Below are positions 59,872 to 61,285 of a stretch of DNA of 64,000 bases, one piece after another. The position numbers and the translations under genes are program-made. Under the pieces are notes generated by a model. The model saw nothing but the letters and a program-made list of their open reading frames with translations. It was not told where the DNA came from and did not search any database. Numbering within the stretch: the first letter of the stretch is position 1; the number at the start of each line of letters is the position of its first letter. The DNA lies in assembly GCF_001425165.1 (NCBI RefSeq), contig NZ_LMDU01000012.1, positions 201,036 through 265,035 of the forward strand. Direction: 5' to 3'. This DNA is from Pelomonas sp. Root405 (GTDB lineage: Bacteria > Pseudomonadota > Gammaproteobacteria > Burkholderiales > Burkholderiaceae_C).

Positions 59872-59916
59872 GGCTTTGGTCAGCTTGCTCGGCGAAGAGA
59901 GCGTGTCATCGTTGCA

Positions 59917-60478
59917 TTGCCGGGAGTCCGTCCCGGCAGCCGGGTAACTTTCTTCTGCGGGGCCAGAAGAAAGTCACCAAAGAAGAGGCCCTGAACCGCA
60001 CACGAGTGCGGCGCCGCCATCAGCGGCGCGCGAAAACAGCCGCTGGCGTTTCGGGCAGACGCGAACCGCTGCGCTCTCGCTGCTGTCCCTATGACGAGAG
60101 CCAAGGATCGAACCTTCACGCCCGTTAACGCCGGCTGCACGCCGGGCTCACCAGGGAATGCGAACGCGGCTTCGCTGGGGCGACGCGTCGACGGAGTCGG
60201 TGCGGCTGAACGCGGCGCCCGAGCGCCGCCGTCTTGGTATTCCTGGTGAGTCCGGCGTGCAGCCGACGTTAAGCGGGTAGGTGGTGCGGTGAGTGATGCT
60301 GGTGACAGGGACAGCAGCGAGAGCGCAGCGGTTCGCGTCTGCCCACTCGCCGTTCGCCTGTCGCACGGCGCAGCTCGTGCATGTGGTGCTGGTGTGCGGT
60401 TAAGGGCCTCTTCTTTGGTGACTTTCTTCTGGCCCCGCAGAAGAAAGTTACCCCGCCGCCGGGCGGGACTCCCGGCAA
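59917..60478. repeat. large inverted-repeat element (about 560 bp) inside the liv cluster
   Basis: The 643 bases between livF and livG (59872-60514) hold an almost full-length inverted repeat centred near 60198. Outer arms 59943-60003 and 60392-60452 match at 60 of 61 positions; middle arms 60055-60090 and 60307-60342 are 36 of 36; inner arms 60127-60157 and 60240-60270 are about 28 of 31; the apex is a hairpin (60212-60218 with 60223-60229). Flanks 59917-59929 and 60466-60478 also pair. Each outer arm has its own 11-bp stem-loop (59947-59974, 60421-60448). Small ORFs across it look like artefacts of the repeat. It may be a non-coding mobile element, a dispersed repeat, or a functional RNA. 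Confidence 0.9.
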
Positions 60479-60514
60479 CGTGGCGCCAAGCCAGAGCACC
60501 GAGCAGCAGCACCA

Positions 60515-61285
60515 TCAATGCGCCCCCACCAACTCACTCGCCTCGGTGCCCATATAAGCCTCCAACACCGCCGGATGCTTCGACACCGTCGCGTAATCAC
60601 CCTCAGCCAGCACCGCACCCCGCGCCAACACCGTGATCCGATCCGCGATGCTCGCGACGACCTTCATGTTGTGCTCCACCATCAGCACCGTCCGCCCTTC
60701 GGCCACGCGCTTGATCAAGGCAGTGACCCGGTCCACGTCTTCATGCCCCATGCCCTGCGTCGGCTCGTCAAGCAGCATCAGCTGCGGCTCCATCGCCATG
60801 GTCGTGGCGATTTCCAGAGCGCGCTTGCGGCCATAGGGAAGGTCCGCCGCTTTCAACGAGGCCATGTCCCGCAGGTCGACCAGCTCCAGCAGCGACAACA
60901 CCTTCGCGTCCAGCGTCTTCAGCCCCGTGAGCCCCTTCCAGAAGTGGAAGCTCGTGCCCGTGAACCGCTGCAGCCCGATGCGCACGTTCTCCAACACGGT
61001 CAGGTGCGGAAACACCGCCGAGATCTGAAACGACCGGATCACGCCACGCCGCGCGATTTGCGCCGAGGTCTCACCAGTGATGTCGGTGCCTGCAAGGACG
61101 ATGCGCCCACGCGTCGGCACCAGGAACTTGGTCAGCAGGTTGAAGCAGGTCGTCTTGCCGGCACCGTTGGGCCCGAGGAGCGCGTGGATGTGTCCGCGCT
61201 GAACCTGCAGGTTCACCGAGTCTACGGCGGTGAAGCCTTTGAACTCCTTCGTCAGGTCGTGCGTCTCGAGGATGAATTCGCTCAT
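60515..61285 (-). CDS. livG: ABC transporter ATP-binding protein
   Basis: The 256-residue LivG-type ATPase has an intact Walker A (LLGPNGAGKTTCFN), a signature region of the LivG type (LPYGRKRALEIATTMA), Walker B LMLLDEPTQGM and the VEHNMKVV switch. With LivF having Arg in its Walker A, LivG probably carries the catalytic ATP site. It starts 60 bases after the hydrolase gene and ends 37 bases before the inverted-repeat element. Confidence 0.95.
   Translation of the reverse strand: MSEFILETHDLTKEFKGFTAVDSVNLQVQRGHIHALLGPNGAGKTTCFNLLTKFLVPTRGRIVLAGTDITGETSAQIARRGVIRSFQISAVFPHLTVLENVRIGLQRFTGTSFHFWKGLTGLKTLDAKVLSLLELVDLRDMASLKAADLPYGRKRALEIATTMAMEPQLMLLDEPTQGMGHEDVDRVTALIKRVAEGRTVLMVEHNMKVVASIADRITVLARGAVLAEGDYATVSKHPAVLEAYMGTEASELVGAH

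What the first reader, a model, noticed from the sequence alone, without database searches (positions are those of the whole stretch)
59917..60478. A 560-bp nearly full-length inverted repeat inserted between livG and livF
Three collinear arm pairs (60/61, 36/36 and about 28/31 matches) share a common centre near 60198 within one base, so this is one giant imperfect hairpin, not random repeats. livF and livG are normally adjacent, and the element splits them by 643 bases. If transcribed it would fold into a stem of roughly 280 bp, longer than usual attenuators. The arms contain secondary 11-bp stem-loops. Candidates are a MITE-like non-autonomous element, a dispersed repeat family, or a structured operon RNA. 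Similar-looking arms occur, from memory, as mis-called ORFs in Burkholderiales and Xanthomonadales, but the whole element is not, to my knowledge, assigned a function.
Basis: partly seen in the sequence, partly recalled or inferred. Interest (0 to 1): 0.75.

Follow-up and report, generated by a model that had tools for sequence, protein, structure and literature searches.

The report
Dispersed repeats with triple-helix RNA ends
A 560-base palindrome between two transporter genes is one of ten copies of a scattered non-coding element whose two ends appear built to fold into a rare three-stranded knot, a design found in many bacteria that our literature searches did not turn up.

Summary
Observation confirmed. 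Window 59917-60478 is one of ten copies of a dispersed non-coding element in a Roseateles/Pelomonas-type genome. livG and livF lie 2-6 bases apart in 7 of 17 genomes of the genus; one old insertion explains the filled clade. The giant hairpin shows at most weak compensation. What is conserved is local, at each inverted end: a pyrimidine/purine hairpin (S1:S2), a third strand (S3) mirroring S2, and a tail complementary to the loop: an H-type pseudoknot with a predicted triple helix. In loci gathered without using S3, 61 of 68 distinct ends mirror exactly (9 stem types); loop-tail helices of 4 bp or more occur in 33 of 38 (shuffles: at most 26). All 15 readable ends at the old site are intact; diversity of the ten copies is 0.013 in the modules, 0.185 inside. 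The motif is in 50 of 398 Pseudomonadota genomes. In three genomes of other orders it lies 3' of 14 of 25 fetched TwoAYGGAY RNAs (Rfam), never 5'. Mobiliser and function are unknown; I favour an RNA role within transcripts.

The parts
59883..59916 (.). Outer arm, livF side (related to GGTTGC...GAGAGC outer sequence of other copies; boundary approximate)
   Evidence: related sequence flanks other copies; not present in empty sites
59917..60478 (.). Core element, inverted repeat, one of 10 copies in the genome
59932..59944 (+). Outer hairpin of the livF-side end (CCCGG-CAG-CCGGG)
   Evidence: sequence; for the class, stem of 5 bp or more outside S1 in 42 of 100 distinct flanks, shuffled at most 17
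59948..59956 (+). S1, pyrimidine strand, livF-side end
59960..59964 (+). Loop bases (GGGCC, with the closing C) complementary to the tail
59965..59973 (+). S2, purine strand, pairs with S1
59979..59986 (+). S3, mirror image of S2, proposed third strand
59987..59991 (+). Tail (GGCCC) complementary to the loop: pseudoknot stem
60053..60344 (.). Interior inverted arms and centre, variable between copies
   Evidence: interior diversity 0.185 against 0.013 in the end modules
60404..60408 (+). Tail of the livG-side end, read as complement (GGGCC)
60409..60416 (+). S3 of the livG-side end in pyrimidine form (TCTTCTTT)
60422..60447 (+). S2'-loop-S1' hairpin of the livG-side end
60454..60469 (+). Outer hairpin of the livG-side end (CCCGCC-GCCG-GGCGGG)
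   Evidence: sequence; for the class
60479..60514 (.). Outer arm, livG side (boundary approximate)

Best explanation
Identity (shown): one copy of a dispersed, non-coding, inverted-repeat element of about 560 bp plus about 35 bp of outer arm on each side, ten copies in this genome. Fold (supported by covariation, not by experiment): each end is an H-type pseudoknot. S1 pairs with S2, the S1-S2 loop pairs with the downstream tail, and S3 lies along the S1:S2 stem as a third strand. Read on the strand that runs outwards it is tail'-UCUUCUUU-GGUGAC-UUUCUUCU-loop-AGAAGAAA, an order that allows a telomerase-like major-groove triplex (geometry from general knowledge). How it works (inferred): the element is read as part of operon mRNA behind a stop codon, and the folded ends plus the long stem act there, most likely as a barrier to 3' exonucleases and an RNase III substrate that separates the stability of the upstream and downstream messages, as REP elements do. 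It entered livG-livF once in an ancestor, was kept in place, and its copies are homogenised within each genome.
For: Ten copies; 20 of 20 sites of the 28-bp end palindrome exact with 3 mismatches allowed, two per copy. In loci gathered without using S3 (L001-L298; detection asked only for a C and four purines after the hairpin): S3 exactly mirrors S2 in 61 of 68 distinct ends, 9 stem types; stem positions 5 and inwards agree 290 of 299, against at most 0.732 in 500 shuffles; loop-tail helix of 4 bp or more 33 of 38, shuffled at most 26. In loci found with a pattern that fixed part of S3, the unfixed positions agree 85 of 100 (shuffled at most 0.610) and loop-tail helices are 42 of 76 (at most 15). 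Local helices: 98.7% of cells paired, 111 cells with two-sided changes, covariation score 0.170 against 0.074 in shuffles; slid controls 49-62% paired. Kept in place: 15 of 15 readable ends at livG-livF in 8 genomes intact, 3 stem types; diversity 0.0126 in modules against 0.1853 inside. In transcripts: 43 tandem, 14 convergent, 1 divergent, 5 unassigned junctions, against 35/13/12 in the window, p = 0.002, loci partly orthologous. TwoAYGGAY RNAs in three other genomes read towards the end motif: 14 of 25 fetched hits have it on the 3' side, 0 on the 5' side.
Against: No transcript or probing data. Both strands of an inverted-repeat element carry one end in each form, so sequence alone cannot separate RNA from single-stranded DNA. 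Wobble-like neighbours of the loop-tail helix (15 G-T against 8 A-C) do not settle the strand. Polarity relative to transcription is only mildly biased (29 to 14, p = 0.03, non-independent). Concerted evolution could keep ends intact without host selection at each site. In one search the number of pairs with two-sided change (6) does not exceed shuffles (5.5). Counting hairpins with no demand on what follows, 161 of 407 directed readings have an exact mirror (each palindromic hairpin is read twice, so about 161 of 204). S3 is imperfect in 39 of 187 distinct ends, and the loop-tail helix is under 3 bp in 17 of 114 combinations. All 5 sub-threshold TwoAYGGAY hits of a fourth genome (G153) lack the motif, as do 7 of 9 fetched in G395.
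Confidence: 0.5

Rival explanations
1. A MITE- or REPIN-like non-autonomous mobile element. The folded ends are recognised as single-stranded DNA by a Y1/HUH transposase (RAYT or IS200-like) in trans; the fold is kept because only copies that fold can move.
For: Inverted ends, each a hairpin, at many sites. Y1_Tnp matches occur in 20 of 20 genus genomes and more often in motif-positive genomes across the phylum, 38 of 50 against 175 of 348, p = 0.0007, not corrected for ancestry, lists read off by hand.
Against: The 10 Y1_Tnp loci fetched (of 40 listed genus matches) carry no end motif within about 1.5 kb. Y1_Tnp is also in G003 and G014, which have no match to the element (G003 has 3 sites of a shorter hairpin pattern). 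Twelve of 50 motif-positive genomes have no Y1 match, including G264 and G303 with 11 and 6 motif hits. A duplication of about 9 bp is not typical of HUH transposition (general knowledge). Old sedentary copies should decay, but their ends do not.
Confidence: 0.27
2. A MITE of a cut-and-paste DDE transposon: the ~115-bp inverted ends are plain double-stranded transposase sites, and the pseudoknot relation is a by-product.
For: Remnant of an 8-10 bp duplication (GCGCACTGAC) at livG-livF in G009, G007 and G013; terminal inverted repeats.
Against: A double-stranded site does not predict S3 mirroring S2 through 9 types, nor loop-tail complementarity. No copy with a matching transposase seen: of the three long inward-facing cases read, one holds an inserted IS5-type transposase, one a toxin-antitoxin-like pair, one a short lipoprotein-like frame (names from reading the frames).
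Confidence: 0.1
3. The whole 560-base palindrome is the unit: a giant RNA hairpin or cruciform kept for its length.
For: Very stable fold; long-range pairs 82.5% paired, a little above shuffles at 80.4% (0 of 500 reach it).
Against: Arms of one copy are no more alike than arms of different copies in this genome; where local and long-range pairing conflict, local pairing wins. Many distant ends have no detected partner in the stretch held.
Confidence: 0.08
4. Mirror and tail relations only reflect a few linked haplotypes inherited together, without a fold.
For: Within Roseateles two main stem types occur and copies are homogenised.
Against: Nine types in the S3-blind set and 16 in all, different in length and position, each with its own mirror; cross-type matches 4 of 1203.
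Confidence: 0.05

Closest known systems
REP / REPIN elements with RAYT (Bertels and Rainey 2011, PMC3116915; passages read)
   Same: Dispersed, non-coding, paired inverted hairpins in intergenic space; avoidance of divergent promoters is recalled for REPs.
   Different: Core far longer (about 560 bp; REPIN size recalled as about 100 bp); ends are pseudoknots with a mirror strand; no RAYT beside them at the 10 loci checked; 10 copies, not hundreds; the 28-bp end palindrome is never solo in this genome.
Rfam RF01731 TwoAYGGAY (Weinberg 2010, PMC2864571, passages read; proposed CsrA binder, PMC4333381, passages read)
   Same: In G101 (8 of 9 fetched hits), G220 (4 of 7) and G395 (2 of 9) the end motif lies on its 3' side; in G101 hits often come in inverted pairs.
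   Different: No TwoAYGGAY match in this genome. Whether the Rfam model itself covers part of the end motif was not examined.
Triple-helix H-type pseudoknots: telomerase RNA, SAM-II, ToxI/CptI (recalled; start of the CptI abstract PMC4627078 seen in a listing)
   Same: Order and polarity of strands allow the same kind of major-groove triplex.
   Different: No homology known to me; here the motif sits in pairs at the ends of a dispersed repeat, and triplex formation is untested.
STAXI motif (PMC2864571, passage read)
   Same: Repeated pseudoknots, RNA or single-stranded DNA undecided.
   Different: Described as tandem, near DNA-handling genes; not compared in sequence here.

Membership tests
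REPIN with RAYT | RAYT gene with the same palindrome in its flank | tested here: not met
   10 Y1_Tnp loci of the genus examined, of 40 listed matches; none with the end motif
REPIN with RAYT | Two palindromes in inverted orientation, extragenic, several copies | tested here: met
   20 hairpins as 10 inverted pairs; intergenic
MITE (DDE type) | Terminal inverted repeats | tested here: met
MITE (DDE type) | Target-site duplication | tested here: inconclusive
   8-10 bp at livG-livF in 3 genomes; at the second locus not separable from what start and stop codons need
MITE (DDE type) | Autonomous relative with the same ends | tested here: inconclusive
   None seen among the loci read; three long cases hold other insertions or frames; not an exhaustive search
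IS200/IS605 (PATE) | Insertion without duplication after a fixed short target, moved by Y1 transposase | tested here: inconclusive
   Only one locus with a readable empty site, and it shows a duplication
TwoAYGGAY RNA (RF01731) | Match above gathering score | tested here: not met
   None in the window or in G000; above gathering score in G101, G220, G395
Triple-helix H-type pseudoknot | Two crossing helices with covariation | tested here: met
   S1:S2 and loop:tail
Triple-helix H-type pseudoknot | Third strand covarying with the stem | tested here: met
Triple-helix H-type pseudoknot | Measured base triples | not testable with these tools
   needs a structure or chemical probing

The most novel reading that the evidence does not exclude
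A phylum-wide, undescribed class of mobile or formerly mobile RNA elements whose defining unit is a 3' cap: an outer hairpin plus a telomerase-like triple-helix pseudoknot. Two inverted units make the giant palindromes; TwoAYGGAY is one of several cargo RNAs; copies are selected in place within operons and homogenised in each genome, possibly through an RNA or single-stranded DNA intermediate recognised by the cap.
Probability: 0.35. Interest if true: 0.9.

Novelty: new variant of a known kind. Interest (0 to 1): 0.75.

Why it matters
Bacterial triple-helix pseudoknots known to me (recalled) are few, mostly riboswitches or toxin antidotes. Here a three-strand covariation rule (stem, mirror strand, loop-tail helix) marks the ends of dispersed elements; the pattern is in 32 of 213 genera sampled. 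If it holds, it gives a sequence test for third strands, ties an orphan Rfam family to an element class, and makes testable whether such elements tune operon messages or move as folded single strands.

Tried and rejected
Long hairpin as compensating unit: not seen in this genome, weak in the wider set. Plasmid or phage origin: no match in 72,556 plasmid and 50,697 phage records, from which near relatives may be left out. Rfam on the window: nothing at gathering score; MIR918 and sR24 below score taken as chance or hairpin matches. RAYT linkage: negative at 10 loci, but a positive phylum association stands. Autonomous copy: none among the loci read. Description in print: searches gave no paper on this element or its end sequence in what I saw of the listings; only open-licence PubMed Central is held. 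PMC3733652 was searched for Variovorax, Burkholderia and motif strings, 0 found. A strand test from single mismatches in the end hairpins found none to count. A duplication at the second liv locus could not be separated from codon needs.

Rows dropped and limits: of 60 fetched relative loci, 46 showed two or more recognisable ends, 14 one or none. One search kept 63 of 77 loci given. The 64-copy alignment takes only copies with two recognisable ends (a search that fixes pyrimidines and purines but not their pairing), so it leans to intact ends; searches do not. Copy numbers in relatives are lower bounds (10 candidates scored per genome); in G000 40 of 83 candidates were scored, but one search covers the whole genome for the 28-bp site. 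G010 and G011 gave only paralogues of livF and are not among the 17. The agreement figure (0.920) includes loci found by a pattern that fixed part of S3; one search replaces it. One search placed four TwoAYGGAY loci wrongly (contig edges); one search corrects it. G000 holds three further hairpins of another stem type (23 sites of the shorter pattern), not examined.

Full report
1. The observation. It holds two 28-bp palindromes with 0.00 expected by chance.

2. Copies. The genome (G000, 5.81 Mb, 18 contigs) holds ten copies; the other nine match this one at 79-90% over the matched parts, with one 107-base piece at 95%. Allowing three mismatches, the 28-bp end palindrome has exactly 20 sites, all exact, two per copy, none alone. 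Of 60 genomes (own included) 23 match: 18 of 20 of the genus and 5 of 40 beyond it. Named contigs put the genus at Roseateles/Pelomonas: G008, G009 and G003 share contig lengths with Pelomonas sp. Root1444, R. caseinilyticus P7 and R. saccharophilus DSM 654, and G003 shares livG-livF sequence with the last. G000 itself is not named by any search; the lineage is.

3. Empty sites and history. Eighteen of 20 genus genomes, own included, have a livF match of 90% or more; G007 had no livG in reach. Of the other 17, seven have livG and livF 2-6 bases apart, eight have 600-729 bases, and two (G012, G013) keep 121-127 bases with a smaller palindrome that looks like an internal deletion. On a livG+livF tree the branch that separates outgroups and six empty genomes from all filled ones has support 0.942; G005, inside the filled group, has a 6-base junction unlike the usual 4. 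One insertion, one loss and two internal deletions explain this (inference). G009, G007 and G013 carry GCGCACTGAC near the livF start, a second copy of the end of livG as seen in empty genomes such as G015: a remnant duplication of 8-10 bp. A second copy in the same cluster lies beside a livF paralogue; that junction is 447-817 bases long in 12 of 16 genomes and 65-118 in four (contents not checked in every genome). G004 carries a different family at livG-livF, also with intact ends.

4. Placement. With a simple codon-based gene finder, 43 elements sit between tandem genes, 14 between convergent and 1 between divergent genes, 5 unassigned; the window gives 35/13/12 (p = 0.002; some loci are orthologous).

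5. What is conserved. In the ten copies nucleotide diversity is 0.0126 in the two 44-nt end modules, 0.152 in the terminal 31 nt and 0.185 inside. The arms are a poor long-range pair: within-copy arm identity 0.752, between copies 0.766 here; 0.728 and 0.710 over 56 copies. On a 64-copy alignment the local end helices are 98.7% paired (shuffled 93.4%) with 111 two-sided changes (shuffled 38); at four stem pairs the ends switch between C-G/U-A and U-A/C-G in 10 and 27 copies without a single break, while long-range pairing of the same columns fails in up to 26 copies.

6. The end motif. Outside to inside: an outer hairpin; S1 (CTTTCTTCT and variants); a loop; S2; a short spacer; S3; a tail. S3 is the mirror of S2, not its complement, and the tail is complementary to the loop. 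In loci gathered without using S3, 61 of 68 distinct ends mirror exactly over 9 stem types that differ in length and in the position of C; from stem position 5 inwards 290 of 299 positions agree (shuffled at most 0.732), and loop-tail helices of 4 bp or more are in 33 of 38 combinations (shuffled mean 18.1, at most 26). In loci found with a pattern that fixed part of S3, the free positions agree 85 of 100 (at most 0.610) and helices are 42 of 76 (mean 7.6, at most 15). Over all loci 148 of 187 ends mirror exactly. Cross-type matches are 4 of 1203. An earlier count on overlapping data gave 58 of 90 loop-tail helices against at most 30. This is the mark of an H-type pseudoknot whose linker runs along the stem base for base, as in a triple helix. 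That a triplex forms is inferred.

7. Breadth. The pattern with a mirrored S3 is in 50 of 398 Pseudomonadota genomes, 32 of 213 genera, with no hit of the reversed control in the rows listed, and in 66 stretches of IMG/VR contigs, some of which may be chance. In several phage-like contigs read there a single copy lies near frames that read like terminase, RadC or portal genes (output cut; names from reading). In the distant loci 18 of 19 inward-facing pairs span 376-613 bases (some loci counted twice, one from G000) and one 1495; many ends have no partner in the stretch held.

8. Link to a known RNA. Rfam TwoAYGGAY matches G101, G220 and G395 30, 7 and 18 times, in G101 often as inverted pairs; G153 has 5 sub-threshold matches. 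Of the 30 loci fetched, 14 have an end motif on the 3' side within 90 bases and none on the 5' side: G101 8 of 9, G220 4 of 7, G395 2 of 9 (one with a short stem), G153 0 of 5. Several G395 copies carry another hairpin there. Of the 12 end motifs that one search lists for G101, G220 and G395, 11 lie within about 100 bases of a TwoAYGGAY match, three of these below gathering score. This orients the RNA: the motif is on its 3' side in pyrimidine-first form.

9. Kept in place, homogenised. At livG-livF all 15 readable ends (one is masked) of the 8 filled genomes are intact with their own mirror, in three stem types. Copies at two old loci of one genome are 0.874 alike (6 pairs), the same locus in different genomes 0.779 (43), unrelated pairs 0.783 (42): concerted evolution; in G002 the paralogue (0.819) does not exceed the best orthologue (0.823). 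Repeated independent insertion at the same junction would also give this, but the tree and the shared flank argue against it.

10. Mechanism. Shown: dispersal, an insertion, constraint on the end modules, covariation, homogenisation. Inferred: the fold as a triplex, RNA (rather than single-stranded DNA) as the acting form, and an mRNA-stability role. The mobile-end rival keeps real weight because Y1 transposase matches are commoner in motif-positive genomes (38 of 50 against 175 of 348), though 12 motif-positive genomes lack one and none of 10 genus Y1 loci is flanked by the motif.

11. Novelty. Dispersed palindromes are a known kind; the three-strand end rule, its breadth and the TwoAYGGAY link did not come up in the searches.

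Noticed in passing
L240 (G009:C36:251600-254100): A decayed element interrupted by a pair of frames that read like a HigB/HigA toxin-antitoxin module and a fragment like an IS3 OrfA (names from reading the frames, no family search).
   Followed up: no
L239 (G009:C1:71700-74600): A frame that reads like an IS5-family transposase inserted inside an element copy.
   Followed up: partly
L319, L320, L415-L444: Rfam TwoAYGGAY RNAs lie beside this end motif, motif on their 3' side in 14 of 30 fetched loci; several G395 copies carry a different hairpin there that may keep the pseudoknot without a pyrimidine third strand.
   Followed up: partly
L330, L345, L356, L378, L333, L357 (IMG/VR contigs): AT-rich phage-like contigs carry a single copy of the motif near frames that read like terminase, RadC or portal genes.
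   Followed up: partly
G000:C12:265316 to about 265945 (just beyond the window end): Second element copy of the same gene cluster; its end hairpins are 543 bases apart against 474 here, and its outer sequence on one side diverges just outside the end hairpin.
   Followed up: partly
G000, 3 sites of the shorter hairpin pattern, e.g. C3:76105: Three hairpins of another stem type (CTTTCTTGTGCGCACAAGAAAG seen for one) outside the ten copies.
   Followed up: no
window 59880-60518: Open frames of up to 212 aa run across the element (QKKVTKEE-type peptides), likely miscalled as genes elsewhere.
   Followed up: no
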